This document shows positions 18,101 to 63,659 of a stretch of 64,000 nucleotides of DNA, one piece after another. Where the stretch lies: contig NW_025934787.1 in assembly GCF_000764305.2 (NCBI RefSeq), positions 62,001 to 126,000 on the forward strand, written 5' to 3'. Origin of the DNA: Hyalella azteca (lineage: Eukaryota; Arthropoda; Malacostraca; Amphipoda; Hyalellidae). How positions within the stretch are numbered: position 1 is the stretch's first letter; each line of letters opens with the position of its first letter. The notes below the pieces were generated by a model. It worked only from the letters and a program-made list of their open reading frames with translations. It was not told where the DNA came from and did no database searches. A program made the translations under genes and the position numbers.

Positions 18101-21100
18101 CTGCATTCAGTGAACTAGCAATTATGAAATTAAATCGCTATTTTTCAGCCTTACCTAGTTGTGTTCATTGGGTGTTTCTATTTTTAGCTCATGTTTCCAA
18201 GTTAACATAAAGCCTTCTTTATCTTGTTCGTGGAATCTTCTGTGGTAAACTTAAGTATTCGTTTATCATGTGCAATACATTTTGGCAGGTAGATAGGTAC
18301 GATCTAACAGAAATCGTCAGCAAATATCCGTTTAGGAACAAGTAAGGGTAATTACTTAGAACTGCAATCATCTCTTGTAGGTCACGAAAAATCGGCAGGA
18401 AGATTTATACACACGTCAGTTAATTTTAACCTACAGGAGTTCGATCGAAATACATTATCTACTCCGCGCAGTTTAATGCAACATTGATAACTGTAATCTT
18501 GATCGTCATCAGAATGCGAGCGTAAAATAATAATGTCCAAGTAGAGATTAGTTACGTGATCAGATTAAGAAGTGTTCACATTACTTTTCATGACACTTCT
18601 AAACATTTTCTTTAATGCGTTCGACACTGGTTGTTGTAACTGACAATTTATATTTAGCTGAACTGGAAGTTTCTCCATCAAGACTCGCGTCATGAGCATC
18701 TGTGAGTAACAACCGGACGTCAACACCTCACGTGCTGTGTCCATGACTCATGCTGCGTACGCGCACTCTTGCTATAGTCCAATTAATGAACTCTTACTAT
18801 GAGGAGTAGTTACAAGACTTGATATAATTGATAACTTTAAGTCAATTAACTTAATTTAATTTAGAAGAAATACGTAGCGAAATTTCAATAGTTTTATTGT
18901 AATTGTTTGAAGACCAACTCCACTATCAACCAAACCTAAATTGCCAAAAAAAAAAACGAGTGAAGTACCATAAAATCCTATCGATTACAGTTTCGAGCGG
19001 ACAGGAAATGCTCCAATAAGCGTTGTTTAGACAAAATTTTCGTTCAAAAATATGCACCAATTTCAATATCGTCAAATCTGATCACTTAAATGGAACTTTA
19101 CATAGAATATTCGGTCACTATAGTAGTTAAAATATTCTCAATAGTTATTATATTAAGGCATCATTGTGTAGCAAAAAGCTTGTGTTATGAGCGAGTCTTG
19201 TTTTGTCCGGAGTCTCAACTGCCATCACATTGATGGAACTTTATATGCAGGCTCAACGGTCATGTGCATGCTGAATGAGCAGATTCTGTAGGAAATGACA
19301 CGTTTTGTTGTGAATAAAACTCTAACAATGAGACAAATTGTTTTGCAACTTTTGCAATATTTTCGAATTTTTGTTTCATGATGACATGTTCAGGCTCAAT
19401 ACTCATATCATTGAAGAATGATTTGTGTTGTGAGCGCAGTGAATTTAAGTGCAGTAAATAGAAGAATCATTGTGTTATGTGTTGCGATGACATGTTCAGT
19501 CTCAACAGTCATATCATTGAAGAATGATTTGTGTTGTGAGCGCAGTGAATTGAAGTGCAGTAAATAGAAGAATCATTGTGTTATGTGTTGCGATGACATG
19601 TTCAGTCTCAACAGTCATATAATTGAAGACTGATTTGTGTTGTGAGCGCAGTGAATTGAAGCCCAGTAAATAGAAGAATCATTGTATTGTGAGCCCAGTA
19701 AATAGAAGAATCATTGTGTGTTGCAGTGAACAGCGAGGCGAACGCTCGGCGCATCGCGCTGGTAGAGTCGTGTTTCGGGGCGTCGGGGCAGCCGCTGGCA
19801 GTACCCGGCCGAGTGCTGGTGGGCGAGGGCGTCCTTACCAAAATGTGTCGCAAGAAACCCAAGCCGCGACAAGTTTTCCTCTTCAATGACATCCTCGTCT
19901 ACGGCAACATCGTCATGAGCAAGAAGAAGGTAGATAACACTGCGTTATCACTTCCTTATTCTTCTTGATTGATTTTGTGTCTAAATTTGATTTCTTGCTC
20001 CACCATAGATTAATTTTCTCGTTCCCGACCCTGATTTATGCTGTGAAATTTTATGTGTTTTTACGTTGTTTGTAAATACGAGGTTCATCCTTCTTTCCTC
20101 CCGCCATGGAATTTAGCTTGACATTCTAATTTACATTGTCGGCATACCTAAGATGAATTTTGTAGCCCACGAAATTTATCTTTTGCATTCTGATAGCCAT
20201 TTTCAACATATCTATGTTGAATTTATCAGCCCATGTAATTTATGAAAATGGAGCTCATCTGACATTATTTCCACTTGCTGTAGTGTCTTTTTATTTGGAA
20301 AGTATTTTCGTTTATAGTACAAAGCCACAATGACTATTATATATTCTACTTTTTCAGTTTGCACATGCTTACTTAATTATCTAATTAGTGTTTGGAAAAA
20401 CTTGTCCAGCAATTCCTGTAAGAGAGCTTGTCCATATCAGTAAATCTGGTATACTTGGCTTCACTGAAAACCTACATGAAATTTAGATAATTAATTGAAG
20501 GACATTGCTACCTGCTCATGTACAATTTATTGCATGGAATATATTTTATAGTTACCTATATGGTTTTATATTCAAAAGACCGCTAAGCACAAAACACTGT
20601 GTTCCCTGACAGTACAACCAGCAGCACATCATTCCACTGGAAGAAGTTCAGCTGTCATCTCTAGACGACAATGGCCGTGAGTACAGCAGTCAATAATTAG
20701 TGCAATCAGTGATCATGTTAACAAGCTATAGAGAAAATCACGGCATGCGCTGAGACGTCTGTGGAGCATTCATATGTAGGATATTTTCTTTTGGTAATAC
20801 ATGTGAATGCTATTCATAAAGAAATTGTGGATGCGATCCATGAATAAGCGAATATTGTCACATCTTTGGTTCATTAATACTACTGAAATGATTAAATATT
20901 TTTAAAATAATATTTTTTTGGCATATTGATTAGTAAGATTTATTTATTTGGCTTATTGATTTAGTATAATATGAACAATGAAGTAAGAATATTACTTAAG
21001 AAGTTGAATCCTGAAGCACGCATAGGGCGGAACAGGAACATGTCAAAATTGTATGCTAATAAATAACAACTTAGTTTAATATGTAAATAGTTGTGTTATA

Positions 21101-24100
21101 ATATATAAGGCAATATTTAATACACATAATGAGACGTTATAATTGCCCAACAGAGCACCGCAACGGTTGGCTCATCAAGACTCCTACGAAGTCCTTCGCT
21201 GTGTACGCCGCCACCGCCACCGAGAAGACCGAGTGGATGGCACACATCAACAAGTGTGTGCAGGACCTGCTCAACAAAAGTGAGTGGCACACATCAACAA
21301 GTGTGTGCAGGACCTCCTCAACAAAAGTGAGTGGCACACATCAACAAGTGTGTGCAGGACCTCCTCAACAAAAGTGAGTGGCACACATCAACAAGTGTGT
21401 ACAGGACCTGCTCAACAAAAGTGAGTGGCACACATCAACAAGTGTGTACAGGACCTGCTCAACAAAAGTGAGTGGCACACATCAACAAGCGTTGAATTGT
21501 GCTGACTCTTCAGTCATCTATATTGGCATATTGTTTGCCAGCTCGTGAACGCAGGAAAGCTTAAAAAAGTATAATAATTGGAATAAAATTATTATTTAAT
21601 ATTATTTTATTATAATTATTGAAATAAAATTATTTCAATAATTGCTAGGATACATAGGCTGAAACTCAATTTTTTTGCGCTGTGACGTTACAAATAGATG
21701 TATGTAGGTATTTCTTAGGTCCATAAGAAAGTTATTATTATATTCATAACATCATTTCCTACACAAAATTTTTAGTCAATTAGTTACCTTTAATTAAAGA
21801 AAGGTTCTTCCAGCTCCTTTGTTGGTGTTGTGCTGTAACACAGTGTGATGTGCTGTAACACAGTGTGATGTGCAGTAATGTAGTGTGATGTTGTTGATGT
21901 TGCAGGTGGCAAGAAGGCCGCTGACACTCACGCTGCCGTCTGGGTCCCTGACGACGCTGCCACCACATGTCAGCACTGTCAGCGCGTCCAGTTCAACGTC
22001 ATCCAGCGCCGCCACCACTGCCGTGCGTATCTCAGCGTCCAGAAGCCTCAATAATACGCATATTTTTATTAGTTATGTTTAGCATAACATATCATAGTGA
22101 AGTCGGAGCTGAAGAATTGGCCTGATATGGCCTGTTGCCGGCTCTTGTAATTTTCGTGACTTGTTCACAGGAGATCTTAATACAGGTCCTTCGAAGTTTT
22201 AACTTCTGACTAAAATATTAGGCAATGGTTTCTGTTTTGCATGATATTTTTAACTTGAATCTTGTTAAATGAACGATGTATCTAAATAAAGTTTGGTGAT
22301 CACTGGTTGCTTGTGGATGCTGTAATCCATGCACCGTAACCCTGGTTGTGATAACCCTGGTTGTGTACAGGGAAGTGTGGTCGTGTGGTGTGTGGTGGTT
22401 GTACTCCACGTACCATAACCCTGGTTGTGTACAGGGAAGTGTGGTCGTGTGGTGTGTGGTGCGTGCAGCAGCAAGAAGATCCTACTGCCGCACCAGAGCA
22501 GCAAGCCGCTGCGCTGCTGCCTCGCCTGCTACGACGAGGTCAGCGCCGCGTCTAAAGCTGGACTCGGCGACAACAGGCCTGCTGGCGGTCAGTTATATTA
22601 CTATTATTTTATTTCTATATAGATACTCATGATAGTTTCCCTTTTAATGCTCACTCTTAACAGTCAATTCTAAATGTTCTTGATCCTCGTAAAGTATAGC
22701 GATCTGATTCATTATTTTACTCCTAAAATATCACTCATGATAGTTCACTCGTATTGTTTACTCTTAAGAGTTCACTCTAAACGTTCTTAATTCTTGCAAT
22801 GTATTGCTGTCAGCTTCATTATTTTACTCTTATAACTTCAGTCCTGATAGTTAACTCGTGGTGCTTTCTCTTAACAGTTCACTCTAAATGTTCTTAATCC
22901 TCGTAAAGTATAGCGATCAGCTTCATTATTTAACTCCTAAAATTTCTCTCTTTTTTACTTCACTCGTAATTCTTTCTCTCAAAAGTTCATTCGTAGTGCT
23001 TACTCTTAACAGTTCACTCTAATTGTTCTTAATCCTCGTAACGTATTGTTATACCGTAGAAGCAAGCGATATCCTCTTGAGTCTTGACTGAAAGTTGACG
23101 GTTAATTCGTCCGCATTGGACGGATTGTGCTCCTATAGTTTTATGCATTCCGTGCCTCTGATAGTCACTCAATCACCATGACTCGTATTATGTAGTCTCA
23201 AGCTTATAATCTTATTCATTTTATTGAAATATTCAGTGCCGTACTCCAGATCTTTTGCTTCAATCTTATGCAGCTAATTATTTAGCTATTCATCTCACGC
23301 TTATTGTCGGACGGCTTTTACGAGTGATTTTCATGCTATGCTTTTTAATCATTCGTTTCATGAATTGTGCTCTAAATTTCATGTATTAATCTTTGCCCTA
23401 AAATTTAATGCTGGTAATGCTATGCTTTAAATTTCATGCTGTAAATCTTATGTTATGAAATTCATTGTTCTTGAAGTTGATTGTGCCGCAGATCGAGGAG
23501 TTCTGTGCACTTTTTTTCCCTAGCTCGTAGTTAAAATCTCGGGCTCCACTGCACATTCGTGTGGCGACCGCAAGCGATAATTGTTCACTATATTATGAGT
23601 CAATGTTTTAGTGGCAGAACTGCGAGAGACTCAGCCTTCTAACTTCAGTTATGCTTCAAATTCATCGTAGCGGACTGAACTCCTTATATTTTGCTCTGGG
23701 TTACTTTTCGCTTGAACATGAACATTATCTTAATGTTTATTATGTTTTTAATTTAATTTCTGCTGCTTGAATTTCTTCGTGCTGGCTTCGTGATGAGTAT
23801 TTAATTTACTGGGGATGCGCATCAGAGTCCACGGAAGACCTCATGGAATTTGACGAGATGATCGACGAGCGTCTCTTGGACTCGTACCTCGACCCTCTGG
23901 AGGAGGACGACAGAATGCTGGGAGACTTCGCCTCCGAGTGCGACGAGGACGAAGAGCTTCACGACGACAAAGACGAGCTTCACGACGGCGATGACGAACA
24001 TGAAACTAAAGAAGCCACCACAAACGAGGCTGTGAAAGACGAGCAAGGTTCCAAGACTGGAAAAAGCGAGTTTCCAGAAGGGAATGTCAAAACTGGAATT

Positions 24101-27100: not shown

Positions 27101-30100
27101 GACGACTCGGACGACGAAGGAAACCCTGGCGATGATGCCGCGCAGCCTCCCATGCTCACGGTGCGCAGTGTTGATACTTGGGACTATGGTGTTGATACTT
27201 GGAGCTGTGGTGTTGATACTTGGGACTATGGTGTTGATACTTGGAGCTGTGGTGTTGATACTTGATGATACTTGGAGCTGTGGTGTTGATACTTGATGAT
27301 ACATGGAGCTGTGGTGTTGATACTTGGAGCTGTGGTGTTGATACTTGGAGCTGTGGTGTTGATACCTGGAGCTGTAGTGTTGATACTTGTCTGTATCTCC
27401 TTATAGTTATGTTGTGTTCAAAATTTGTTGTAAATGTCATGGTAAAGTTTTTACATATTTTGTATAAATTAATCCTAAATCAGGTTAAACGTCTTTTTTT
27501 CTGGATTGTGAAATATTTTGAGAAATATTCCTTTTTCGTGGTATTCCTTCGACATTCCTGGCTTCCTATCTCCTCACGAGCACAATGTTTCCCCACAAAT
27601 TCGCTGCTTAGTGTTTCTCATCATCTTCAGGAGACAATGTGTTGGTTGTCACTAAATTTGTTAGTTGAAATTCCTACTGCGCAGGTCTTTTTTGAATTTT
27701 TTTGCAGTTGATTGTTTATTGATCGATTCCTCTTTACTGCAAAACCTGCGGCTCGCTTCGAGCTTTGTACCGACTTGTTGTGAGTTTTCGTCCAGCGTTT
27801 TGTGCTTCATTAATTAAAAGGTTTAATGTCTATTTATCATATTTTCTGCTCTCTTTTCGTTATTAAACTCCTGTTCAATTTTTGTCTATTTCTCATTCTA
27901 CTCGTTTCTTTTGGAGTTTAATTCCATGATCTTGCAATCCATTTTGTTAGTGATTATCATGGCACTTCAGAGCGCGACTCCCTTGTATTTTCTGTTGAAA
28001 AATAGCATCTCCTCTATCTTGAGATTCCTTCTCAAGTGTTCCACATTTCCCCTACAGTTCGGAGAAAGTAATGAGGCACAGCGAATTATGGCTGCAATGT
28101 AAGTCTTGGTTTTGTATCGAACTTATTATCTTTCTATTGCGTTGAAGTCTTCTTACCGAACGTTAGTTCCCAGTTCTTCCCTCAGTTGATGTTGATCTTC
28201 TATGTATTGTTTTGGCTTGGGATCATGAGAGAATTAACGAGTGCGTTTGTATGCTCAATAATTGAGTGTTGTGATGCATTTACGTCTGCACCCCTAGACC
28301 AATGAGTTGCTTTATCGTTGTTTTTAGCACATTTTCTCGTTTAAGGAAAAGAAGGCGCTATTGTGCTCGTCATGTCCGTCTGCCCGTCCGTCCGTCTGTC
28401 CGTCCGTCCGTCTGTCCGTCCGTCCGTCCGTCCGTCTGTCCGTCCGTCTGTCTGTCCGTCCGTCCGTCTGTCCCTCTGTCTGTCCGTCCGTCCGTCTGTC
28501 CGTCTGTCTGTCTGTCTGTGACTTCACGTTGCCGAGTATCCATATACTCGGCAACGAGAAAATGCGCTCTCTGTCACTCACTGCAGTGAGTACTGATATA
28601 TTTTTTCTATAACTTTGGTTCACGGTTCACATTAATTTGTTTCATTATTTACTTATTTTTCTTATATTCTCTCGCGTTGAGTCCGCGAGTAAGCATCTGT
28701 GTTGTGTAACATTCTCTGCCCAGTGCTTGCAGCTCATCCGCTCGCGTTACTTTCACTCCCTCCATTTGTTAGCCAGGCACAAGTTTTTGAAATGAAAGTT
28801 TTTACCATGTGTGGATTTTTTGTTTACGTACAACTTGTTTAGGATGATTGTTCTCGTTACTTATTACTGCGCCGCTCCTCACAATTGACTCCGTCATTTG
28901 TTGTCGTAACAAATTATTCAACTTGTTTAGCATGATTGTTCTCGTTACTTATGACTGCGTCGCTCCTCATAATTGACTCCCTCATTAACTATCGTATTCA
29001 AGACTATGGCTACCTTCTCGTACATTGGTGCTTGGAATCGCACAAAAAAAATTTTTCTGACGCCTACGTAACTATCCCATTCAAGAGAAAAAAAATATTT
29101 TGTCGGTATCCTCGTGATATATTTTTGTCCCACTTGCTCCAGGTATTCCCACCCGCCTTCAGTAGACTACCTTTCTGGCAACCACTCACTTACTCAACTT
29201 GACGCACCTGTGCCGTCTTAAATGAAATGAAATCGCGGAGTGAGCAAACTAGCTGAAGGGTGCACAGCTATATGTGGCAGAATTTCTAATACACGTTTTT
29301 TTCAGACTATTGTTTTAAAAAATCAACTTAATTGTAAGTTGGAAAAGTCGTACGTGTTAATAGAACGTCTCTTGTAGCCGCCTGTGTACACTCTTTATGA
29401 AGTCGTTCACTCTGCATTTGACCTTTTTTCGGTTTTCACTGTCAGGGTCTTTATTGTCAGAATCAATTTCGAAACGAAGGTGGGCTGTATTCATTTTTAT
29501 TTCATTTTATTTGCTCGAGGAAATTGGTAAGTTCACAAGCTTGGTGCGGAGACGCAGGTAATAAACTGCAGGCATCGATGGCTCAGAATATCGTTATGCA
29601 TTTGCCTTAAGCGCCAACTGCTAATTTTATAGACACGATAATTACGTGCCGCATTCACAGTCCTATCCATTTTCATTCATGCTGAGTCTGTTCAACTTCA
29701 TCAAGATAAAATACGCTTATTCGGGATGGGAGATGACGCTTTCTCCAGTGATATTCAGACTGTGGGACTTCTTTGCCTCCGGTTGTGAACTACGAACCTA
29801 ACCTTGCCTCTTCTTGCAGACGTTCTTCTAGGGCTGTTAGCTATGAATTTAACTTCAGAATAATACATCGGAATGACATTAGGTGTTGCCTGGGTCCATT
29901 CTGAGAGCTTAACAAACGTTCTTGAATTAGGCATCTAAGCTAGCAATGCCTAGCGCAACGTCTTGTAAAGACAGATCTTTCGTTACGCTTGTTCCGTTTT
30001 CCTCTAAGACTCCTACAAGACCGCGCAAGACCAAGCCTATTGTCTGGTATAGTAATCAATGCCTTACTAATAAAATTGGTCTTAGTTAAACCGAATCGTT

Positions 30101-35290: not shown

Positions 35291-35299
35291 CTCGGCTGA

Positions 35300-45700: not shown

Positions 45701-48599
45701 GAGGTACAAATAAGAAAAAATTAGATCAGTACTCACTGCAGTGAGTGACAGAGAGTGCATTTTCTCGTCCGTCCGTGAAGTCACGGACGGACGGACGATC
45801 ATGACGAGCACAATAGCGCCTTTTTTCCATGAATAAGAAAATGCGCTAAAAAGTCTTCTAGAGTCCCTACATATGGTCTCTATAAATCGAATGACATGTT
45901 TTTCAATGCCGTAGCTTAAAAATAATTTTAGATAGATTGTTAACATGGAGTATTTTGGAAATTTAAATTGTTTAGGGGAGCCAAATAAGTAAAAATTTAT
46001 CAAGTAATTTATCAAGTAATTTAAAAAATTACTTGATACGGTAGCCCCAGCATTTCCTTTGTCAATTACTCGTATTGATGATACCATCACACGTCTTTAG
46101 ACTTATTTTCGTCCAGCTTGACGCGTACAATAAGCTATAGATGTGATTTTTCTGGTATATTTATTTATAAAAATGGTCATTTTAAAAATGTTAAAAAAGG
46201 CCTCACGGTAAAAATATGTCAGCTATTTCCTTGCGGTTTTTTGTTTTCGAATTGTCATAGTTCTTTCTAAGAAATGAGATGATATATGTAAAAAACGTAA
46301 TTTCTTAGAATTGAGGGCAGATAATGCCCTAAAGGGCCTAAAGCAACAAAATTGGAGCAGTGAGTTGCGTGTTCGAGACCGCAACAAGCTGTGAATCTTC
46401 AGCGATATTAAGAATCAGCGACAGGGCTAACACCCTATAATCACAGCTGACACTGCTACTGTTATATATTATAATTATTAATTATTACGTACTATTATTA
46501 GCGCATTTTCTCATTTATGGAAAAAATGCACTATTGTGCTCGCTATGTCCGTCCGTGACTTCACGTTTTCGTCGACGAGAAAATGCGCTCTCTGTCACTC
46601 ACTGCAGTGAGTACTGAGTTATATTTTTATTATTATGCACTTAGAAACGAACAACGTGCGTCCTCTCCAACTCACAAAATCCTTCGCTCTCGAATTGTTA
46701 TAGGCTTTCCTGACCTATCATTTCTGGGGCTTTTTCTTATTTTTGTTGCCCCATGGGACACGGTGATTTTTCTTCAGCGGATATTATCTCAAATCTTTCG
46801 ATGACAAAATAAATAAATTTTTTGTATTCATTTAGCAATTTTCGTTTGTCTCCACAAAGTTGTTTGGATAGCTGAATGGATTCATCACGTCGTCGGCGAG
46901 CACTTCCCTGCAACACAAGATGAATGGTTGCTTTATAATATAGGTTATATATTAGTTAATATACCTATTAGTTATAGGTTATATATTAGTTAATATATTA
47001 GTTAATAGGGGAACTAATCATCATATAATGCAGATAATCAATATTGTCTGCACTTTCTGTACTAGCTGTCACACCAAGCTTTGTCCAGGATTTCGATTAA
47101 CTTCAACTGTTAATTCGGCTACACAATTGCAGCCGACTGCTTAAAAATGCGAACAATGACAGTAAAATTAAAATTTTCGACGGAGTCACGAAATAATCAT
47201 GCAAACGTGACAAAAACATTGAAAAATTCTGCAAAACTGAAACAAAGTTGGCAATATTAAATTTGATTCCGATGCTAAATTGGTAACCCATATCGGTAAC
47301 GCTTCAAAACCACGTGGTATAAGGAAATAATATCCTCCATGGGTATTACAGATAGTTTCTTAAAAAAAACTATCTTTGAACGTTCTATTTCTCACACAAA
47401 CAAAAACACCATGTACGGTGAAGGTGAAATTCAAATTATTGCAATTCTGCGCTCATGTATCAAAATATAACAACAATTTCAGCCGCGACGCTATTCATAG
47501 GATGGTGATGGTCCAAATTGTGGGGAAAATTAAATATGCATTACTGGAAACATTCATCGACTAACTAGCCTTTTAAATTTAGCAAAAAAATTCAGTGGAG
47601 TTTCGCTACGTGTGGAACCGATATTATTGCACTTAATGCCAGCATTAGTACAATGTGGAATTAATAAAAACCAGTTAATTTCGTACATGACGTCAAACGT
47701 GAATTGTGAAAACTGGTAGCTAATTGATTCTCGTCTATACTAATGAAGTGCCGCAGACTGAATACAAATGTCTACTCGCCTCAGCGATTTCGAAACATTT
47801 CGAATTTCGTTAGTTCCTGGAAAGGGTTAACTCATAGTGCAGAGAAATAAAACGTTCAGCTACGCGAGGGAAGTAAAAAGTACCTAAAGACAAGTTGCAA
47901 TAAATGCAATAGAATGTTACTATGGATAAACCACAACGTTGCAATAAATTAAATACAATGTAGCAATGCAGAACAATAGTCATGAATCTCTTGACTTTTT
48001 GTCAAGTAAATGTTTATAAAATTCAGGAACAATTCATAAATTGAAGGTAATTTTGTCAAAAATGATGTTTCTCTACTTAAGCATTGCTCATAATTCTAGC
48101 TTGCTATGGTTTAGACATGGTCGCTGCCCAATCGACTCCTGCATCCGAGGCGACATTGTGTCCAGTAATTTAATACGAATACATCACGGCCTCACCGCGC
48201 CGAGGAATCGTTTCGAGCGCTAAAAAATCTTTTCCATATTTTTTTGCAATTTTAATGTGGCATCAAACTATGAATGTAAAAAAATTATAAAATTAAATAA
48301 CTAACGAAAGCATAGGAAACAATTCCGTTGATTAATTTAGTCACAGACGCCGTGGCATCCTATCACATTAAAATCGAATTAGGTATAGAAGAAACAAAAG
48401 GCGGGATTATGAAGATGGTTGAGACTTTTCAGCTCTGTGCCAATGTGGGTGAAGTTATGGTGATTGTCTAGTATTGGAGACTTAGGAGTCTCAGAGCAGC
48501 TTGAAAGCTCTATTCTTTGTGAGACTAGCGATGACAAGCCCACTTACCAACAGAAATGAGTCCGAAAAAGAAGAAGGTAGCACAAACGATGGTCTTCAT
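36540..48599 (-). CDS. Ly6/three-finger GPI-anchored protein (quiver/sleepless-like)
   Basis: CDS join (minus): 48599-48548, 39018-38848, 36745-36540. This gives 429 nt and 142 aa. Introns are GT-AG, both in phase 1. The product has a signal peptide (MKTIVCATFFFFGLISVGLA), then the Ly6 start VKCYECNS. Ten cysteines follow in three-finger spacing, ending in CSCKDDECN. A hydrophobic tail (TTLVSLAGLVSLLVVARLM) after small residues AAS fits GPI attachment near the last Asn. Such proteins sit on the outer membrane; fly quiver/sleepless modulates K+ channels and nicotinic receptors (family knowledge). The specific partner here is unknown. A paralogous first exon lies at 52.9 kb. Confidence 0.9.
36932..37074. 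mobile_element. GGCC-TIR MITE, second copy
   Basis: 143 bp with ends GGCCATACTTTCAAAA and the complement of TTTTGAAAGTATAGGCC. It is flanked by a perfect 4-bp duplication CAGG (36928-36931, 37075-37078). It is inverted relative to the copy at 5324-5456, to which it is highly similar throughout. It lies in the second intron of the Ly6 gene. Confidence 0.9.
37452..37634. repeat. recent direct duplication (about 95 bp x2)
   Basis: ggaagatggctgaacaagat through gcaaatctaa and gctcattgat occurs twice, separated by an A-run. The two copies differ at only two or three positions, so the duplication is recent. Confidence 0.9.
37635..38625. other. Ly6 intron 2, nothing recognised
   Basis: AT-rich intronic sequence. 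Confidence 0.45.
38628..38840. repeat. about 70-bp degenerate tandem repeat beside exon 2 donor
   Basis: Three copies of aacacctgca, then gtgaatgatgtaa, aattcaattacgattaggtt and agt, ending about 10 nt from the exon 2 donor on the intron side. Confidence 0.75.
38848..39018 (-). CDS. Ly6 gene exon 2
   Basis: Acceptor gtttcatttgcag, donor GAGA|GTGAGT. It encodes GLAVKCYECNSHEMPECKDM, SSKALQSLVDCDSKTNDTH and VYTLCRKLHMFMDEQVGE. It holds the end of the signal peptide and Cys 1 to 5 of the Ly6 fold. Its first 10 nt and the acceptor are copied in tandem upstream (39009-39260). Confidence 0.93.
39009..39320. repeat. 82-bp tandem array copying the exon 2 acceptor (about 4 copies)
   Basis: acggccagtcctgcaaatga followed by aacagg and a T-rich filler starts at 39009 (real exon edge), 39091, 39173 and, decayed, 39249. 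On the minus strand each intact unit presents tttgcag|GACTGGCCGT. Three near-identical acceptors therefore lie in series before the true exon. Confidence 0.93.
39321..40440. other. Ly6 intron 1, nothing recognised
   Basis: Intronic. No element ends found. Confidence 0.4.
40440..40625. repeat. GT-rich minisatellite, about 27-bp unit
   Basis: Seven or so copies of ggtgaaggatgtgtgtggtg plus gggatatt, with length variants. Open frames on both strands (His/Thr/Pro-rich on the minus) are repeat translations. Confidence 0.9.
41107..41675. mobile_element. foldback element with about 110-bp inverted arms
   Basis: The left arm (about 41107-41216) is the reverse complement of the right arm (about 41565-41675), roughly 85-90% identical. 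Landmarks are tagattgt, gaactgacgatggagctgga, cgaaacgttttcaat and atggtgaatttacttggc. The spacer is about 350 bp without coding capacity. Outer target duplications could not be found. The gaactgacgatg...cgaaacgtttt motif resembles hairpins near retroelement 3' ends (weak recollection). Confidence 0.75.
41676..43330. other. Ly6 intron 1, nothing recognised
   Basis: AT-rich intron, with an aaaattcatgtaattt-type short repeat at 42100-42160. No gene. Confidence 0.4.
43333..44623. mobile_element. TIR transposon remnant with GGGTAACATGGGGC ends
   Basis: The left end GGGTAACATGGGGCAGCG matches the complement of the right end CGCTGCCCCACGTTGCCC. TA flanks both sides (43331-43332, 44624-44625). Further ggggcaacgggcccac-like subrepeats occur inside both halves (near 43700 and 44390-44440). 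No transposase frame remains in 1.29 kb. TA targeting suggests a Tc1/mariner or similar superfamily, which is uncertain. Confidence 0.65.
44085..44262. repeat. degenerate about 28-bp tandem repeat
   Basis: Roughly seven copies of a unit like tcaaggatatatttttcaag, T-rich, inside the GGGTAAC element. Confidence 0.7.
45229..45345 (+). mobile_element. tRNA-derived SINE, copy 2
   Basis: The B box GGTTCGGTCCC is preceded by ggattggagcagagaggt and followed by cgtcagcttctggtcagatt then cggcaaggag, the same order as at 15564-15670. A decayed relative (attggagcagtgagttgcgt and gttcgagacc) lies near 46350-46390. Confidence 0.65.
45712..45853 (-). mobile_element. CTGTCCGT-core short element, copy 3 (reversed)
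   Basis: Read on the minus strand: ttagcgcattttcttattca, ggcgctattgtgctcgtcat, a short CCGT core, gacttcacgg, gagaaaatgcactctctgtc and actcactgcagtgagtact. The core microsatellite is only about 20 bp. Confidence 0.85.
46498..46630 (+). mobile_element. CTGTCCGT-core short element, copy 4 (minimal)
   Basis: ttagcgcattttctcattta, atgcactattgtgctcgcta, tgtccgtccgtgacttcacg, ttttcgtcgacgagaaaatg and cgctctctgtcactcactgc with the gtgagtactgagttatattt end. The shortest and cleanest copy (about 133 bp). It likely approximates the founder before microsatellite growth. It sits in an ATT-rich site. Confidence 0.88.
46631..48547. other. Ly6 intron 1, proximal part
   Basis: Includes a small tatattagttaatat repeat at 46940-47015. 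No other features. Confidence 0.45.
48548..48599 (-). CDS. Ly6 gene exon 1 (signal peptide)
   Basis: It encodes MKTIVCATFFFFGLISV plus one base, then donor GTAAGTG. A TATATAAG box lies at 48743-48736 on the minus strand, so transcription would start about 30 nt later (near 48705) with a 5' UTR of about 105 nt. The phase (1) matches exon 2. Confidence 0.88.
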
Positions 48600-51770: not shown

Positions 51771-51775
51771 TTCAT

Positions 51776-55868: not shown

Positions 55869-57013
55869 GACAAAAAACCTCGTAACGGTGACCGCGACAT
55901 GTGTACAAAAACTTAGTAGCTTATTAGAGATACAAGAAGAAGATATTCCATTCAGTTGTCACAGGCAGGAGCTGCTACTACAGTACTAGCCAACCGAACT
56001 TTAGTTGAACCTATAGTTCACTACTGTCAGGGATGAACGCCCGCAGCTCCAGGCCAAGACAATATATAAATGAATTTCAGGCAACTGTGCTTCATTTATC
56101 TGACCTACAATGCTGTTTCGAACTCTCCTAGTCATCGTTAGTATAAAAGCCGGTGCAATGGCCATGGATTAAAATAATGAAAAATCACACTTAAAATAGT
56201 TTAGCAACTCACTTTTTGTTAAAATCGTAGCCACACAAACATGATAAAACAGTTTATTAGAAATCACTTTGCTAAAATCGTAATTCCGCAAAGTTAAAAT
56301 ACTTTATTATGCTCAAATTCCGATTAAAACCACTTGATTATACGAGAAGTTCAACACCGTATTGCACAGCATTAATGCATGTAGTTCAGGAGAAGCATTA
56401 ATCCACATACGTGAAACGACAGCAGGGACACTGGTAATAGTCGGCAATACTCGACCAGTTAGCAAAACTAGACTGACAAACTAGTCAGACATCAGGTACT
56501 GTCTAGTCCGCCTTCGTAGCACTGGGCTGACTGCACAGGGCCACGGTCAGCTAACAACTGCCTAACAACTCAACAAGACTTCAGCGACTGCTAATCTCTG
56601 CTAACTACCTCGCGTTCAGTAGCGTACAGGTTCCTCTGCAGTGTGTATGATACGATTACTTGACGCGTGCGTGTCTCTTACATTTTTGTGAAAGATAACA
56701 ATGATTTAACAGATACCACATTTAAAAATCCTACGCGTGAATAATTAAAAGCAAGTAATTTTGGGAGCGACAGTTTCTTGTCGTTCATACAGGTTTCAAG
56801 TGTGATATAGACGAGCAAGAGTCTGAGCGAAATAGGAAAACAATAGTATACAAATCGAACACAACGAATTAATACAACTCTAAAAAACAGAAAAATGAAA
56901 CTCACTGTGAATAATCTAAAAAAAAAGAAACCTGATGTTGTAAATAATCGCTAATTGAGGGTTTCCTAGGACTGCCCATACTTTTGGAACGGAATTAGGA
57001 GGGCTAGGCGGGG

Positions 57014-57216
57014 ACTGGTCGACCCTAGTTATCCTGCATCACAGGGCTAGGTAGGGTCTGATCAAATCTAGTTATCCTGCATCACAGGGCTAGGTGGGGT
57101 CTAGTCGAGCCTAGTTATCCTGCATCACAGGGCTAGGTGGGGTCTAGTCGAGCCTAGTTATCCTACATCACATGGCTAGGTGGGGGTCTAGTCGAGCCTA
57201 GTTATCCTGTTCCTGG
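57014..57216. repeat. 43-bp tandem array carrying the BLMH stop codon (5 copies)
   Basis: ctagttatcctg anchors occur at 57025, 57068, 57111, 57154 and 57198 (spacing 43, 43, 43, 44). On the minus strand the unit reads aggataactaggctcgacta then gaccccacctagccctgtga. The unit nearest the gene encodes the last BLMH residues (RITRLD) and the stop; the rest lie in the 3' UTR. Confidence 0.93.
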
Positions 57217-57313
57217 CGAGGGCCCCCAAGGGGTCCCAGGCTGGCAAGACGGTCACGGGCGTCGTGAAGACGTCGAGCACGTCTTGCGGCACATACTTGC
57301 GGTCCACCACAAC
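57188..57313 (-). CDS. BLMH: BLMH exon H (terminal)
   Basis: Acceptor gacccgcag. It encodes VVVDRKYVPQDVLDVFTTPV, TVLPAWDPLGALA, then RNRITRLD and TAG. Vertebrate BLMH ends shortly after WDPMGALA, so the last eight residues are an extension that comes partly from the 43-bp repeat unit. In BLMH/Gal6 the C-terminal arm lies in the active-site cleft and sets exopeptidase trimming, so the altered end could matter (inference). Confidence 0.93.
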   Translation of the reverse strand, partial: VVVDRKYVPQDVLDVFTTPVTVLPAWDPLGALARNRITRLD

Positions 57314-60300
57314 CTGCGGGTCATACACAACAGCGTTCTAGTGCAAGCGGTCCATGCCTCGTCGGTTACGATGCTTACAATTTACCATGGCCACTTTTGA
57401 ATTTAACTTAGCATGGCGACTTTTTAATTTGATTTAGCATGGCGACCTTAATGGGTCGAAAAAACAGTTGCGAAGGGTCAGAACTATTATATTTTCCCTT
57501 GGGTTGAAATGCTATGAGTCAAATGCTACTAATCGAAACACTTTAACAAAACTTTAAAAATAGTCAAACGACCAATTTTAGGGAAGCGATGACTAATTAT
57601 GAAAGAGCCTTTAATTACGAACGTTTGATAAACTAAAGAAAAAGTTTATATTCTATTACCACCAAATTGTTACTACATCACATCGTTCATAACTACGATA
57701 GAAACCTCATTATTTATCTCTCGTCGTCAAAGAAAGCTATTTCAGTGCACTTCAGTTTCTACTTGTATGCTCTTCGTTAGTAAGCCCATGCTGCATAATT
57801 CTCAGGAATCCACGTGATTTCCTGATGACCGCGCTAAGAACGGACTAGGCAGTTATTACTTAGACAACGTTATGACATCGTTTCTATATCAGAAATTACC
57901 ATGACAGGCCTCGTATGTAGGGTATCAAGTCTTCAGTTCTGGGATTTTTCACTGTAAAAATAATCTAACGTAACATAAAGCCTCAATTAGATGGCATGTT
58001 AGGCATGTCTGAACCAAGAAGCTCGTTTAACAATTTTTGGAGCATAGACCAGGAATAACCATACCTTCAATATTAATAATTCACCGCCAACTGATCAACA
58101 CAGTTCTCACCTCAAAAAATAGACCAGGAATAACCCTAACTTGGAAATAAATAATTCACCGCCAACTGATCAACACAGTTCTCACCTCAAAAAAATAGAC
58201 CAGGAATAACCCTAACTTGGAGATAAATAATTCACCACCAACTGATCAACACATCGCTCACCTCAAAAACAAACTGCTCGAACCAGGGTCTGCTGAGCAC
58301 GTGGTAACCTTTCTCGCCGCGCTCCTCGCCCCAGCTGTTCTCCACCCGCCACTTGACAGGGAGGGCGTCCGCCTCCTTCTCTGGCGCGCCATCGTCAACT
58401 TCGTTGCTCTGTAGATGATTAAATTCACTTTCTGTTCTGGAGTATTCACGATTTGAATACATACATAAATATTAACAATAAATACTTACAAATTATAACA
58501 TTATGATAATACAATTCTGCGGCTGGAAATAAATTTTCAAAGTCTTTATTAAATCAAGACGGAGATGGTGAGGGCATACCCATGGTCACCCAGCGCTTTA
58601 TGTATGAGAAGAGCAGAACACGAGTGTTGATGAAGAAAAGAAGCAACTGATTTCGTTCAGGATAATACGGGAGTATAACTAAAATATGAATTATTCCTGG
58701 CATCAGAGGGCAAGGGTGGAGGGCAAGGGTGGAGGGCACGAGTATTAGAGAGATCCGAAAAATAAGAGAGGGAGACCAAGAAGACAACCATCTCGATGGG
58801 AGTATTGCATGAAGCAAGGAGAGATGTAAGGGCAGAGGAGAAAAGGAAGCCCCCACCCTAAACTTGAATGCCCTTAGAAGCTGCAATGGAGCAATGGAAA
58901 CAGAGCCTCTGCTCAGCAGCAACTCATTTACGAGGACTGCTCGCAAATACGAGCGCTGCTCGCAAATACGAGCGCTGCTCGCAAATACGAGCGCTGCTCG
59001 CAAATACGAGCGCTGCTCGCAAATACGAGCGCTGCTCGCAATTACGGTGCAGCCGAGCAACAAGTGACGCAGTAACGGCGGCATGGGCCGATTTGTGGCG
59101 TTTTGATCGAGAAGAAAATGCACCTAAATTGCAGCGACAAAGAAAGAACACAGATTTGGTTGACATAAATGTCACAAGTAACTCATCAAGTCGGAAGCAA
59201 ATAAACGATGCTTCCTAGTAACAAGACTTTAAAAAAAAACTCATTGAAAGTGAAAATTTCTATGTTAATCTTCGTCTAAGCGACGAAATAAATGCACTTC
59301 ATATCCAGATGACAAAAATCGAGAGTTTCCATCAAAAGACAGTGTTGCAGATCCGGTCCCAAGTAAAACATTTAGAATGTGAAGCAACATAGGTGTGCAA
59401 AACATGGATTATCATTGAGAGTGAATATTGAGAGCGCCTACAGGCTGGAAGTGGCAGGCTGTGAAGGTCATGGCGTGCGTCATCTGGGAGTCGCCATAGA
59501 AGAGGCGCTCAGCTTTGTTCAAGCCTTTGTTCACATCCACGCCCAGCAGACGTCGGTAGTCGAACCTGGTGGCCACGTCCATATTATTCCTTCATCATCA
59601 TTGTTGTTATAAATTATTATTATTATTATTGAATATTTAATCTTGAAGTCTGGAACAATCCGAACTTCCAGGGTGCTTCACATATTGTTACATACTACTT
59701 CTTATAACGAGTCATCACAAACACCCTGAGGAATGGAAGCAAGCATAGAAATTGAGATAGTGTAGCAAAGGGCAATTAAATTTCTATAATAATGATCTAC
59801 CTTATCATATAAATATCATCGCAATATTCGTGTACAATTCAGACTCACGCCTCCGTGTCCTGAATGCCTAATTTTCTAACGAAGCCTTTATCAACCTCGC
59901 TGCCAAACCAGACAGCCTCTCCATCTCTGATGCTGTCGCCCGACACCTGCACACAGCATAGTAATCAAGTCAATCATCAGCACCTGATAATGATGAAAAT
60001 GATGATACCCAAACTTCTCTCCTAAGTCAAGCAATCGACCTTGCTACAACACCACGGGTCTACAGAAATGCTTGAGAGATAATGAGATAAAGGAGTATTT
60101 ATCTAGAGCATTGCTAATTGGGGGCTACCTTCATAAGGGTCTATGGGCTATGTTGTAGAGCTACCTTCATAAGGGTCTATGGGCTATGTTGTAGAGCTAC
60201 CTTCATAAGGGTCTCTATAGGCTGGTTGTTGTAGAGCTACCTTCATAAGGGTCTCTATGGGCTGGTTGTTGTAGAGCTACCTTCATAAGGGTCTCTATGG

Positions 60301-63300
60301 GCTGGTTGTTGTAAAGCTACCTTCATAAGGGTCTCTATGGGCTGGTTGTTGTAGAGCTACCTTCATAAGGGTCTCTATGGGCTGGTTGTTGTAGAGCTAC
60401 CTTCATAAGGGTCTCTATGGGCTGGTTGTTGTAGAGCTACCTTCATAAGGGTCTCTATGTGCTGGTTGTTGTAGAGCTACCTTCATAAGGGTCTCTATGG
60501 GCTGGTTGTTGTAGATCGTCATGCGGCCGCCCGCCATGTTGCCCAGGCAGTCGACGCTGTAGAGGCGGCCGTAAGGGTTGCTGGGCCTTGGGTCATTCAC
60601 CAGGCACACCTAAATAAACAAATAAATAAATTGAACAAACACACAAGTTATACAAGATTTAGCCCGAGGTGCCAATGCATATATTTAACACACACATATT
60701 ATACAAGATTTAGCAGAAAGCACGCGCGAGGCGCTAATGCATATATTCAAAACACACATTTTATATAAGACATAGTAGAACAAGGCACACCTGAAGCTCC
60801 AGATTTATAAATTAAACACAATTATATCATATAAGAATTAGCAGAAATGAAAATGAAATCAGTATATCATAGATGACTGATGAAATCATAATAGTTTTTA
60901 AAGATATTTTATAACTCTAAGAAGTCAATTGGCCAGGAAAATGGCTTTGCTTTAGTTTAACTCAAGGTGCTGATAGAATGATGTGTTATTTCATCAAAAG
61001 CAGCCGGCAATTCAGAAAAAAATTATCCGTGTTCACAGAAGGCATTTTGGTGCATGGAGACACAGTTATCAAAGCCAGCAGGCACTCTTTGGTTGTTTTT
61101 GAGCGTTGTTTGGTATTGCATTACATCTCCTCATATCTATCCTTTTTGTTATTTTTTAGCTTATATCAAATTTCTTTGGTTGGTAGTAATTAAATGAAGT
61201 ATATAAAATGACACAAGAGACGAGAAGCCTAAGGAATATTACTGTCATCTTTCTGACATCGCCAGGTAGTAAAACATCACAACACACACAGTCAGCCTTC
61301 ACCTTCTGCTCAACATCAAAGACCGGCTTAACGTGCTGCTCATAGAACTCCTTGGGACTGATTGGCCCAATCTCCTTGTAGGCCTTGGTCTTGTCGTAGT
61401 ACTGCCACGTGAAGGCTGAGGGCGGGACGCCAATAGTCACGGCCAATATCCTGTAGACCTCGAGCATCTGGCGCCGCAGCAGCGCCCGCACCTCGTCGTC
61501 CGGAGCGGCCTTGTCCTCCAGCAGCGTGCGTATCTCCTTCGTGTACTCCCGCAGCTGACGGGGGATAACTCAATTAGGAAGGATAATTATTTCGTTGACA
61601 AAGAAGAAAGGTTATCACTTAATGATCGCGGGCAACAACAAGAAGGAAGTTGGAATCAGGAGGCTTCTATTTTGCATTAAAGTTGATGGAGGAGTTTTCA
61701 CAAAAGAGAAAAAATTCATAGCAAAATCATTATCCACTCATCGTTCATCATCTCAATTTCTTATGTATACCCTGGCTATGATTATTAAACAACCAACTAC
61801 CATCATTCACGAAGTACCTCACAACATAGCTTGACAATGATGATGTTAACCAAACATTAGTGATTCGGATCCAAACGAGCGGAATTAATGAGTGATGGAT
61901 CATAGCACATCACAGAGCACATATACCTATTGTTTGCATCACCCATGAATGCAATGTAGCTAATTTTTAAAGAAGATAGAACTTTACCATTTTATATACT
62001 CTAAATATTTTCATATGATTTCAAGTCAGCAATTCAACACAAAACCGAGCAAATAACGATTTCCAAACAATGAACACGAGTGCCGTTCATTGAATAACCT
62101 AAAAATTCAAGAAAAAAGGGCTACAAGAAACTTTTGATGTGACATTTTTCATGAGACAAACTCGATGCAAAAGAGCATTTAGGTAGTATACAGATGAGCC
62201 ATTAAATTTTTAAAATAATCTTAGGGCACACTTATTATTTACATCAATCCCTCACCATATTCTGTAATGGTGAGGGGATTCTTCATCTGTAGTTCTTTGT
62301 ATCACAATTATGACTCCCGTACAAAATATTTACAAATGAATATGACACGAGAATAAAATAACTCATCATTCATGAAAAACAATAAGCCAACATACATTTT
62401 TAGGAACTCGGATTGCTGGTGAAAAAGTGTGAACAAAATAAAAATTTACTAAAAACATTGCTTTCATAAAAAATCAACTAATAGATAGGAAAATTTGTCG
62501 GGACTTGAAATAAAACAAGAAACTAAGTCACAGAGAAAGGAAATTATAATATAACTACTTGATGGGTTCATTAAAAAGGCTGCATCCCCTACCTTGTGCC
62601 GCAGAACCGAATTCATTGTTCCAGAATTTTCTGAACTCTGGGACTCGGGAAAGCATTTCTTGGGCATCAGGCCGTACCTTCAACACAGAAACAGTAATGA
62701 GGCTTCAATTTTCCTATTAAATGGATAATTAATGCAGGTCTAGTCATCATTTCAATCTATTTAGGCCAAGAAGCAAGCATGGTTTGTCAATATTGAGGTC
62801 TAAATGATTTAGTGTTATGAATAAAATTCAGCTGCCGCAAAAACATGTAAAACGACTTGCATATGAGCAGGCGCTCTGGTCATCAAATTCCCTTTTTAAT
62901 TATAAGGGCATTTCAACAAAATAATTTTAATGAAATTGTAAGGAAAATGCAATAGTTTGCAGTCAATGTTATGAGTCTTGCTGAGCATAGATCACGTAAA
63001 TAAAAACGCCCCTATATAGGTAGTCAGGTTGAATAAACATGTCAAGCTGGCCACCGGCACCATCATTGATGAGGTCTGCAGCTAATGCTAATATAAGTCA
63101 TCTTACTTGTTGACAAGGTTGAAGAACATGTCCCACTGGCCACCATCATTAATGAGGTCTGCAGCTAATGCTAATATAAGTCATCTTACTTGTTGACAAG
63201 GTTGAAGAACATGTCCCACTGGCCACCATCATTGATGAGGTCTGCAGCTAATGCTAATATAAGTCATCTTACTTGTTGACAAGGTTTATGTCCCACTGGC

Positions 63301-63659
63301 CACCATCATTGATGGGGTCTGCAGCTAATGCTAATATAAGTCATCTTACTTGTTGACAAGGTTGAAGAACATGTCCCACTGGCCACCATCATTGATGAGG
63401 TCTGCAGCTAATGCTAATATAAGTCATCTTACTTGTTGACAAGGTTGAAGAACATGCCCCAATGGCCACCATCATTGATGAGGTCTGCAGCTAATGCTAA
63501 TAAGTCATCTTACTTGTTGACAAGGTTGAAGAACATGTCCCACTGGCCACCATCATTGATGGGGTCATGCAGCAAGAAGCTCATCAGGCGGCCATCAACG
63601 GGTTCTCCGGAGCGACAGCAGTCAACCATGATGTTAAGGAAGTAATTGCAGCGCTCCAA
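57188..63659 (-). CDS. BLMH: bleomycin hydrolase, C1B cysteine peptidase (3' part of gene)
   Basis: CDS join (minus, 5'-partial): 63659-63514, 62677-62593, 61554-61303, 60609-60481, 59946-59849, 59589-59442, 58408-58262, 57313-57188. This gives 1131 nt and 376 aa plus stop, with all GT-AG and consistent phases. Motifs in order match mammalian BLMH: NDGGQWDM, YGLMPKKCFPES, AFTWQYYDK, EHVKPVF, CLVNDPRP, YNNQPIE, DGEAVWFG, NKAERL, MTHAMTF (catalytic His), KWRVENSWGE (catalytic Asn), GYHVLSRPWF and LPAWDPLGALA. The catalytic Cys (SSGRCW in the family) lies upstream, outside the window. BLMH is a cytosolic homohexameric neutral aminopeptidase that trims peptides, removes homocysteine thiolactone and inactivates bleomycin (family knowledge). 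Four exon edges or the stop are duplicated in tandem arrays. Confidence 0.95.
57320..58040. other. BLMH intron, nothing recognised
   Basis: Intron between exons G and H. No element found. Confidence 0.5.
58044..58275. repeat. 76-bp tandem array copying exon G end and donor (3 copies)
   Basis: The donor-containing ctcacctcaaaaa lies at 58105, 58181 and 58257 (real). The unit continues tagaccaggaataaccctaa and cttgga(a/g)ataaataattca, then ccgccaactgatcaacaca. On the minus strand each unit presents TTTTTGAG|GTGAG. A partial earlier unit begins near 58044. Confidence 0.92.
58262..58408 (-). CDS. BLMH: BLMH exon G (catalytic Asn)
   Basis: Acceptor tcatctacag, donor GAG|GTGAGC. It encodes SNEVDDGAPEKEADALPVKW, RVENSWGEERGEKGYHVLSR and PWFEQFVFE. 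The Asn of VENSWGE (58339-58337) is the active-site Asn of papain-fold peptidases. Confidence 0.95.
58935..59045. repeat. 19-bp tandem array with internal palindrome (six copies)
   Basis: The unit ctgctcgcaaatacgagcg has inverted ends (gctcg...cgagc), so each unit can form a small hairpin. In the BLMH intron between exons F and G. Open frames on both strands across it are artefacts. Confidence 0.93.
59442..59589 (-). CDS. BLMH: BLMH exon F (catalytic His)
   Basis: Acceptor gatgatgaag, donor CCT|GTAGGC. It encodes NNMDVATRFDYRRLLGVDVN, KGLNKAERLFYGDSQMTHAM and TFTACHFQP. The His of THAM (59477-59475) is the catalytic His. Confidence 0.93.
59849..59946 (-). CDS. BLMH: BLMH exon E
   Basis: Acceptor tgtgtgcag, donor GC|GTGAGT. 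It encodes VSGDSIRDGEAVWFGSEVDK, then GFVRKLGIQDTEA. It matches the KDGEAVWFGCDVGK region; the family Cys after FG is Ser here. Exits in phase 2. Confidence 0.93.
60125..60518. repeat. 40-bp tandem array copying exon D end and donor (10 copies)
   Basis: cttcataagggtctctatgg then gctggttgttgtagagctac repeats at 40-bp spacing from 60201 to 60481, with two shorter units before (near 60129 and 60165). On the minus strand each unit reads CAACCAGCCCATAGAGACCC, TTATGAAG|GTAGCTC: the exon D end and its splice donor. The unit at 60481 is the real one; nine decoys follow in the intron. Read-through in the exon frame stops at 60415-60417. Confidence 0.96.
60481..60609 (-). CDS. BLMH: BLMH exon D
   Basis: Acceptor gtttatttag, donor AAG|GTAGCT. 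It encodes VCLVNDPRPSNPYGRLYSVD, CLGNMAGGRMTIYNNQPIET and LMK, collinear with vertebrate ICLVNDPRP to YNNQPIDFLK. Phase 0 on both sides. Confidence 0.95.
60610..61302. other. BLMH intron
   Basis: Contains a loose about 65-bp repeat at 60625-60850 (acacacattatacaagattt, agcaga, gcgccaatgcatatatt). No gene. Confidence 0.5.
61303..61554 (-). CDS. BLMH: BLMH exon C
   Basis: Acceptor tccccgtcag, donor AAG|GTGAAG. It encodes LREYTKEIRTLLEDKAAPDD, EVRALLRRQMLEVYRILAVT, IGVPPSAFTWQYYDKTKAYK and EIGPISPKEFYEQHVKPVFD then VEQK. Helical bundle region of BLMH with the FTWxYxDK motif. Phase 0 on both sides. Confidence 0.95.
61555..62592. other. BLMH intron, nothing recognised
   Basis: Intronic. An open frame at 61595-61834 has no domain features. 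Confidence 0.5.
62593..62677 (-). CDS. BLMH: BLMH exon B
   Basis: Acceptor ctgtgttgaag, donor AAG|GTAGGG. It completes Lys and encodes YGLMPKKCFPESQSSENSGT then MNSVLRHK, matching YGVIPKKCFPES of mammals. Confidence 0.93.
62678..63026. other. BLMH intron
   Basis: Nothing recognised before the 83-bp array. Confidence 0.5.
63027..63570. repeat. 83-bp tandem array copying exon A end and donor (about 7 copies)
   Basis: catcttacttgttgacaagg then ttgaagaacatgtcccactg, gccaccatcattgatgaggt and ctgcagctaatgctaatata starts at 63099, 63182, 63265, 63342, 63425 and 63505 (real exon edge). Spacings are 83, 83, 77, 83 and 80, with a decayed unit at about 63027. Each unit carries about 55 nt of exon A coding sequence plus AACAA|GTAAGATG on the minus strand, giving five decoy donors in the intron. 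Confidence 0.95.
63514..63659 (-). CDS. BLMH: BLMH exon A (most 5' exon in window)
   Basis: Acceptor attcattgcag, donor AA|GTAAGA (phase 2). It encodes LERCNYFLNIMVDCCRSGEP, VDGRLMSFLLHDPINDGGQW and DMFFNLVN plus a split Lys. It matches VERCYFF to NDGGQWDMLVNIVEK of mammalian BLMH. Exons with the N-terminal region and the active-site Cys are beyond 64000. Confidence 0.95.

What the first reader, a model, noticed from the sequence alone, without database searches (positions are those of the whole stretch)
19383..63570. Tandem arrays repeatedly include or touch exon edges in all three genes
In three unrelated genes, minisatellites are built from DNA that straddles or abuts an exon boundary. Phafin: exon 2 acceptor (106 bp x3), exon 4 donor (47 bp x5), exon 5 acceptor side (20 bp x3), exon 6 acceptor (64 bp x2), exon 8 donor side (21 bp x10). 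Ly6: exon 2 acceptor (82 bp x4) and, abutting, its donor side. BLMH: donors of exons A (83 bp), D (40 bp x10) and G (76 bp x3), and the stop codon (43 bp x5). Units usually carry a short piece of coding sequence plus a usable splice site. Most arrays extend into the intron, never deep into the exon, so the first or last copy can still splice normally. I know of no described genome-wide habit of this kind. It could reflect replication or repair slippage primed at splice motifs (AGGT/GCAG), selection that tolerates growth only on the intron side, or decoy-site buffering.
Basis: partly seen in the sequence, partly recalled or inferred. Interest (0 to 1): 0.88.

Follow-up and report, generated by a model that had tools for sequence, protein, structure and literature searches.

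The report
Duplicated exon edges in amphipod genes
In three genes of a freshwater shrimp-like crustacean, short stretches that span the end of an exon have been copied head to tail into the neighbouring intron, a structure known from lancelets as a 'mirage', so the cell must pick one correct splice site out of up to ten near-identical ones.

Summary
The arrays are real in the assembly. The window is Hyalella azteca (amphipod); the genes are Phafin/PLEKHF, a Quiver/Ly6 protein and bleomycin hydrolase (BLMH). Of 11 placements named, 7 duplicate coding sequence with the exon edge (4 donors, 2 acceptors, 1 stop codon); 4 only lie close to an edge. Outermost copies encode conserved protein, so duplication ran from exon edge into intron. 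I found 24 extra splice-site copies with GT or AG kept; each, used instead of the outermost, would end the protein early. Within the window the excess is suggestive: 6 of 33 genic TRF arrays straddle an edge against 1.4 expected for randomly placed founder units (P 0.0016), but against 4.2 (P 0.22) if whole arrays are shuffled. It is strong only for units of 35 bp or more (9 of 11 straddle or abut), a cut chosen afterwards. No genome-wide test was possible (genome search did not complete). The structure is not new in kind: 'mirages' are described in lancelet Adh, globin and troponin C genes. Best reading: ordinary minisatellite growth, tolerated because splicing can use the outermost copy. New here: the amphipod host and a natural test of splice-site choice.

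The parts
12178..12193 (+). Phafin (PLEKHF-like) coding exon 1, MVDRL, donor GTGAGT
   Evidence: pattern found; joins exon 2 in phase to MVDRLVNSEAN, as in Hirondellea P0121
19727..28098 (+). Phafin exons 2-9 (19727-19929, 20613-20676, 21154-21279, 21906-22022, 22435-22587, 23826-24722, 27063-27160, 28058-28098); later exons and the stop not mapped
   Evidence: open and in phase over 565 aa; FYVE and PH domains; 95% to a Hirondellea PLEKHF2-like protein over 37% of the query
21238..21489 (+). 47-bp x5.4 array over the Phafin exon 4 donor; 5 identical 13-nt donor copies, 4 of them extra
22351..22461 (+). two copies (22351-22397 and 22415-22461, 47 nt identical) over the Phafin exon 6 acceptor; 1 extra acceptor
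   Evidence: not reported as one array by TRF
19380..19718 (+). 106-bp x2.9 array (to 19685) with a degenerate tail, near (not containing) the Phafin exon 2 acceptor
21825..21891 (+). 20-bp x3.3 array near the Phafin exon 5 acceptor
22603..23024 (+).
27168..27389 (+). 21-bp x10.6 array near the Phafin exon 8 donor
48548..48599 (-). Quiver/Ly6 exon 1 (signal peptide), donor GTAAGT
   Evidence: the three joined exons equal NCBI LOC108678901 letter for letter, 142 aa
38848..39018 (-). Quiver/Ly6 exon 2
36540..36745 (-). Quiver/Ly6 exon 3 with stop
39009..39303 (-). 82-bp x3.7 array over the Ly6 exon 2 acceptor; 4 acceptor copies, 3 of them extra
38644..38817 (-). 71-bp x2.4 array, position difference 31 from the Ly6 exon 2 donor
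57188..63659 (-). BLMH exons A-H (63514-63659, 62593-62677, 61303-61554, 60481-60609, 59849-59946, 59442-59565, 58262-58408, 57188-57313); exons before A not in view
   Evidence: 368 aa open in phase to the stop; Peptidase_C1_2 E 4.6e-127; a 201-aa part matches PDB bleomycin hydrolases, best E 4.5e-65
63051..63573 (-). 83-bp x6.4 array over the BLMH exon A donor; 6 donor copies, 5 of them extra; a further degenerate end copy has lost the donor
60124..60515 (-). 40-bp x10 array over the BLMH exon D donor; 10 donor copies, 9 of them extra
58044..58269 (-). 76-bp x3 array over the BLMH exon G donor; 3 donor copies, 2 of them extra; the NCBI gene model runs past the first donor unspliced
57000..57209 (-). 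43-bp x4.9 array over the BLMH stop codon

Best explanation
These are exon-edge minisatellites of the kind called 'mirages' in lancelets. A short tandem duplication (units 40-83 bp) happened to span the exon edge and then grew by ordinary replication slippage or unequal exchange (inferred). Copies carry the same splice site. Because the transcript can still be spliced at the outermost copy (first donor or last acceptor), the protein is unchanged and selection does not remove the array, whereas the same growth inside an exon would often break the frame. Shown from sequence: copy structure, direction from exon to intron at the edges checked, inner splice sites with GT or AG kept, an early stop from each inner site found. 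Inferred: that the outermost site is the one used in cells, and that the crowding near edges is mainly tolerance plus a high birth rate of minisatellites in these introns.
For: The exon copy encodes conserved protein: in BLMH, DGGQWDM at the exon A edge and YNNQP and LM at the exon D edge are invariant in all 8 aligned rows (2 rows Hyalella, 5 named other crustaceans, 1 unnamed source), and MAHINKCVQDLL at the Phafin exon 4 edge is the same in Hirondellea P0121. The search for splice-like sites (3-4 mismatches allowed) found 24 extra copies, GT or AG kept in 24 of 24; each gives a stop before the normal end: Phafin 4 donors and 1 acceptor, BLMH A 5, D 9, G 2, Ly6 3 acceptors. The public Ly6 model LOC108678901 is identical to the version using the outermost acceptor. 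Arrays cover 16.5% of intron, 5.2% of the remaining non-coding and 5.4% of coding bases. Lancelet mirages have the same anatomy and are reported not to disturb splicing (PMC3087553, PMC3902484, passages).
Against: No RNA from this animal could be examined, so use of the outermost site is not shown directly, and the public BLMH model does not use the exon G donor at all. Tolerance alone predicts about 1.4 straddling arrays of 33, not 6 (unit-level null), so it may not be the whole story. Copy numbers rest on an assembly with at least one gap beside an array.
Confidence: 0.72

Rival explanations
1. Exon edges are mutational hotspots: something about splice junctions (base-composition step, transcription-linked breaks, splice-motif microhomology) starts long-unit duplications there more often than elsewhere in introns.
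For: Unit-level null: 6 straddling against 1.42 expected, P 0.0016; straddle plus near 12 against 3.49, P 0.00003; units of 35 bp or more: 9 of 11 straddle or lie within 50 nt, P 0.00004 even when whole arrays are shuffled. GC-matched unit placement does not remove the straddling excess, P 0.005 (shorter gene spans).
Against: Whole-array shuffle for straddling alone P 0.22. A good local copy is no commoner at edges (7 of 36) than in intron 20-300 nt away (22-25%). Rotation test P 0.10-0.16. Without BLMH the straddling excess drops to P 0.13. None of the 22 short-unit arrays straddles. No shared breakpoint motif seen by eye.
Confidence: 0.22
2. The extra copies are kept for a function: decoy or buffering splice sites, or regulation by non-productive splicing.
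For: GT or AG kept in 24 of 24 extra sites found, 20 of the 24 identical to the authentic 13- or 15-nt site, and all would give truncated products. Counted base by base against the exon copy, splice windows differ at 5 of 307 positions and the rest of the compared parts at 100 of 921.
Against: The base count is inflated by indel runs and by changes shared between copies, and the sites were found by their likeness to the authentic one. Counted as variable columns over whole units in 5 arrays, splice windows have 5 of 67 against 8.5 for random windows, P 0.12. A degenerate end copy of the BLMH A array has lost its donor. The BLMH D array shows no unusual RNA folding, z -0.21. One array covers a stop codon, where there is no splice site.
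Confidence: 0.05
3. Assembly artefact: the arrays or their copy numbers were made by a draft assembly.
For: An N gap (12459-13200) lies between two arrays in Phafin intron 1, and one lancelet mirage was mis-assembled in that genome draft (PMC3087553).
Against: Three arrays have 5-10 copies that differ from one another at several places, which placing two haplotypes side by side would not give.
Confidence: 0.06
4. Chance: a minisatellite-rich stretch in which a handful of arrays happened to hit edges, noticed afterwards.
For: 42 arrays cover 10.6% of the window; three genes only; cut-offs chosen after looking; whole-array straddling P 0.22; with 'near' set at 10 nt the whole-array P for straddle plus near is 0.06.
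Against: With 'near' at 50 nt straddle plus near gives P 0.0075 for all 33 genic arrays under the whole-array null, 0.013 and 0.010 at 20 and 100 nt, and 0.02-0.04 leaving out any one gene.
Confidence: 0.25

Closest known systems
[quoted passage not shown] PMC3902484, one passage read; Canestro et al. 2002 not held, known here only through those papers)
   Same: Tandem units span an exon edge, at donors and at acceptors; units of tens to about 160 bp; extra copies carry AG/GT signals; several genes of one genome affected
   Different: Host is an amphipod crustacean; one array covers a stop codon; normal splicing and length instability were reported in lancelet but not tested here
Internal tandem repeats at exon-intron boundaries of recent human paralogs (PMC2812944, abstract and passages read)
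   Same: Minisatellites (on average 30-bp units) at exon-intron boundaries that alter gene structure
   Different: Those vary between paralogs and can create new introns; here the mapped genes keep their reading frame and no new intron is evident
[quoted passage not shown]
   Same: Tandem duplication of a piece that supplies splice signals; the fission yeast case cited there has multiple copies of a 24-bp unit
   Different: There a new intron arises within exon sequence; here an existing edge is multiplied into an existing intron

Membership tests
mirage (lancelet exon-edge minisatellite) | tandem units spanning an exon-intron boundary | tested here: met
   6 of 11 named placements span a splice junction, 1 more the stop codon; the other 4 only lie near
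mirage (lancelet exon-edge minisatellite) | both 5' and 3' exon edges affected | tested here: met
   4 donors, 2 acceptors
mirage (lancelet exon-edge minisatellite) | extra copies carry AG/GT splice signals (many, not all, in lancelet) | tested here: met
   24 extra sites found by a search allowing 3-4 mismatches; one degenerate end copy of BLMH A lacks it
mirage (lancelet exon-edge minisatellite) | found in several genes of the genome | tested here: met
   3 of the 3 genes mapped here; no other gene of the genome was seen
mirage (lancelet exon-edge minisatellite) | mRNA is spliced normally despite the array | not testable with these tools
   no RNA reads; indirect and mixed: the public Ly6 model uses the outermost acceptor, while the public BLMH model P0001 runs past the exon G donor
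mirage (lancelet exon-edge minisatellite) | copy number varies between haplotypes or somatically | not testable with these tools
   one assembly only
[quoted passage not shown]
   the junctions give a protein that aligns with relatives without extra residues there, but intron positions of relatives were not available

The most novel reading that the evidence does not exclude
In amphipods, and perhaps other minisatellite-rich genomes, exon edges are favoured birthplaces or refuges of long-unit minisatellites, so that a sizeable share of genes carries ladders of near-identical splice sites from which the spliceosome reliably takes only the outermost. Lancelet mirages would then be one case of a wider, convergent genome habit.
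Probability: 0.3. Interest if true: 0.72.

Novelty: new member of a known kind. Interest (0 to 1): 0.45.

Why it matters
The structure is known from lancelets, but an arthropod set would show that it arises independently in distant genomes. The BLMH exon D ladder (ten copies of one donor, nine with the same 13-nt site, 36-40 nt apart, only the first compatible with a full protein) is a natural experiment on how splice sites are chosen among equals. Such arrays may also mislead gene prediction: the public BLMH model ends just past the exon G donor.

Tried and rejected
Splice-motif priming: looked by eye at the limits of homology of the 7 edge duplications; no shared motif or fixed distance. RNA folding of the BLMH D array as a way to hide inner donors: z -0.21. 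First permutation tests (and the GC control) used gene spans without the first exons of Phafin and Ly6, which were found only; replace; the GC control was not repeated on the full spans. A self-BLAST coverage test missed the stop-codon array and the Phafin exon 6 pair, so it is weak; it gave 5 of 36 edges, rotation P 0.10-0.16. A local-copy score test gave no peak at edges over nearby intron. Rfam: no match at gathering score. The 35-bp unit cut and the score-200 cut were chosen after seeing the list; results at cuts 20-70 are. The whole-genome test could not be run. Papers: in the titles and abstract starts listed by 10 searches (20 of 70 hits, 20 of 27, 20 of 88, 10 of 10, 20 of 44, 12 of 482, 2 of 2, 3 of 3, 1 of 1, 20 of 32) I saw none on exon-edge minisatellites in crustaceans; the H. 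azteca genome paper and the lancelet Adh paper are not held, so this is not proof of absence.
Full report
Identity of the window. Joined exons give three proteins. BLMH: the public Hyalella azteca model HAZT_HAZT007251 is 99% identical in the alignment, and its insert KVKADCVCCDVLLPGDV is the window's own sequence just after exon C read through. Ly6: the three joined exons equal LOC108678901 of H. azteca letter for letter, 142 aa; Pfam Quiver/Ly6. Phafin: FYVE and PH domains and 95% identity to a Hirondellea PLEKHF2-like protein over 37% of the query. Both H. azteca hits are listed with a contig of length 219431, and both Trinorchestia homologs with one of length 208362.

Gene models. Eighteen exons were placed first, then the first coding exons of Phafin (12178-12193) and Ly6 (48548-48599); the junctions joined are in phase. 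Phafin intron 1 is then about 7.5 kb and Ly6 intron 1 about 9.5 kb. The 3' end of Phafin and the 5' exons of BLMH were not mapped.

What the arrays are. TRF lists 65 rows, merged to 42 arrays, 6727 bases or 10.6% of the window without Ns. Six TRF arrays overlap a coding edge: Phafin exon 4 donor, Ly6 exon 2 acceptor, BLMH A, D and G donors, BLMH stop. A seventh case, the Phafin exon 6 acceptor, is a pair of 47-nt identical copies 64 bp apart. Six further arrays lie within 50 nt of an edge without touching it. So 'include or touch' is true for all three genes, but 4 of the 11 named placements only come close.

Direction. At BLMH A and D and at Phafin exon 4 the outermost copy encodes residues conserved in other crustaceans, so the duplications copied an existing edge into the intron. 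In these three arrays exon copy and intron copies are 97-99.6% identical over the parts compared (first 7 of 10 copies for BLMH D), so the arrays are young or homogenised; the Ly6 and BLMH G arrays are more diverged.

Consequence. Counting the authentic sites, the search found 5, 6, 10 and 3 donors (Phafin 4, BLMH A, D, G) and 2 and 4 acceptors (Phafin 6, Ly6 2): 30 sites, 24 of them extra. Each extra site, used alone in place of the authentic one, gives a stop before the normal end: 4, 5, 9, 2 and 1 and 3. For BLMH G the stop comes only 32 residues early (the script printed 'no early stop' for these two because its limit was 60), 46 and 121 nt before the last junction; by the usual 50-nt rule, recalled, decay is plausible for one and borderline for the other. 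A working gene therefore needs near-exclusive use of the outermost site. No RNA could be examined. The public Ly6 model agrees with the outermost acceptor; the public BLMH model runs past the exon G donor and lacks the last exon.

Are inner sites kept by selection? Base by base against the exon copy, splice windows differ at 5 of 307 positions and the rest of the compared parts at 100 of 921, which looks like protection; but indel runs and shared changes inflate the second number. Counted as variable columns over whole units in five arrays, splice windows hold 5 of 67 against 8.5 expected, P 0.12. There is no firm sign of selection on the inner sites.

Is it more than chance? Two nulls were used with the full gene spans. 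Placing the founding unit at random, excluding placements wholly inside or swallowing an exon: 6 straddling of 33 against 1.42, P 0.0016; straddling or within 50 nt, 12 against 3.49, P 0.00003. Placing whole arrays: 6 against 4.16, P 0.22; 12 against 6.17, P 0.0075. I think the unit-level null is the right one, because an array founded inside the intron cannot come to include the exon edge by growing; but this is an argument, not a result. By unit length: 35 bp or more, 9 of 11 straddle or lie near (array-level P 0.00004; straddle alone P 0.008); under 35 bp, 0 of 22 straddle and 3 are near (straddle plus near expected 1.8 and 3.1 under the two nulls). The length cut was chosen after looking; cuts 20 to 70 all leave straddle-plus-near at array-level P 0.001 or less, but straddle alone ranges from 0.0075 to 0.13. 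With 'near' at 10, 20 and 100 nt the array-level P for all arrays is 0.06, 0.013 and 0.010. Leaving out BLMH, unit-level straddling falls to P 0.13. Against a peak at the edge itself: 7 of 36 edges have a good local copy (score 36 or more), against 25% of points 20-100 nt into the intron, 22% at 100-300 nt, 10% deeper, 3.6% inside exons and 6.4% of intergenic points, where 'intergenic' there still included Phafin and Ly6 intron 1. The fairest statement is that long-unit minisatellites in these genes crowd the exon ends; whether the edge itself attracts them cannot be settled with three genes.

Known kind. [quoted passage not shown] The PGBD5 paper adds troponin C and likens repeats in PGBD5 to mirages (PMC3902484, one passage). 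Human paralogs show minisatellites at exon-intron boundaries that can form new introns (PMC2812944, passages). Trinorchestia, a related amphipod, has 6.18% of its genome in tandem repeats (PMC7062882, passages), so a high background rate is plausible. By anatomy the Hyalella arrays are mirages; two features of that kind (normal splicing, length instability) could not be tested.

Verdict. A well-formed set of exon-edge minisatellites in an amphipod assembly, of a kind already named in lancelets. Selective tolerance explains where they can sit; a modest, unproven excess leaves room for a mutational preference. The value lies in a second distant lineage and in ladders of near-identical splice sites as natural tests of splice-site choice.

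Noticed in passing
26967, 28564, 45737 (-), 46585, 53197: A 22-nt core (GCGCTCTCTGTCACTCACTGCA, at most 1 mismatch in the 5 matches) occurs five times, mean 0 in 100 shuffles: probably a dispersed element. By position, two copies follow GTCTGTCC-type arrays at 26772-26847 and 28374-28516.
   Followed up: partly
4649-5338 (+): Reverse transcriptase domain (RVT_1, E 9.5e-28), probably of a LINE-like element; by eye, more such ORF pieces at 5611-6126 (+) and 7387-7650 (-).
   Followed up: no
12459-13200: Run of N between a 24-bp x5.6 and a 21-bp x28 array inside Phafin intron 1, a hint that arrays limit this assembly.
   Followed up: no
48835-49171: 39-bp x8.5 array (also read as 160 bp x2.1) about 236 nt upstream of the Ly6 start codon, perhaps promoter or 5' untranslated region.
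   Followed up: no
12178-63659, introns against the rest: Arrays cover 16.5% of the bases in mapped introns but 5.2% of the remaining non-coding bases in this window.
   Followed up: partly
58262-58408 and 61303-61554 (-): The public H. azteca BLMH model HAZT_HAZT007251 reads past the donors of exons C and G and lacks the last exon; it appears to be a faulty gene model.
   Followed up: yes
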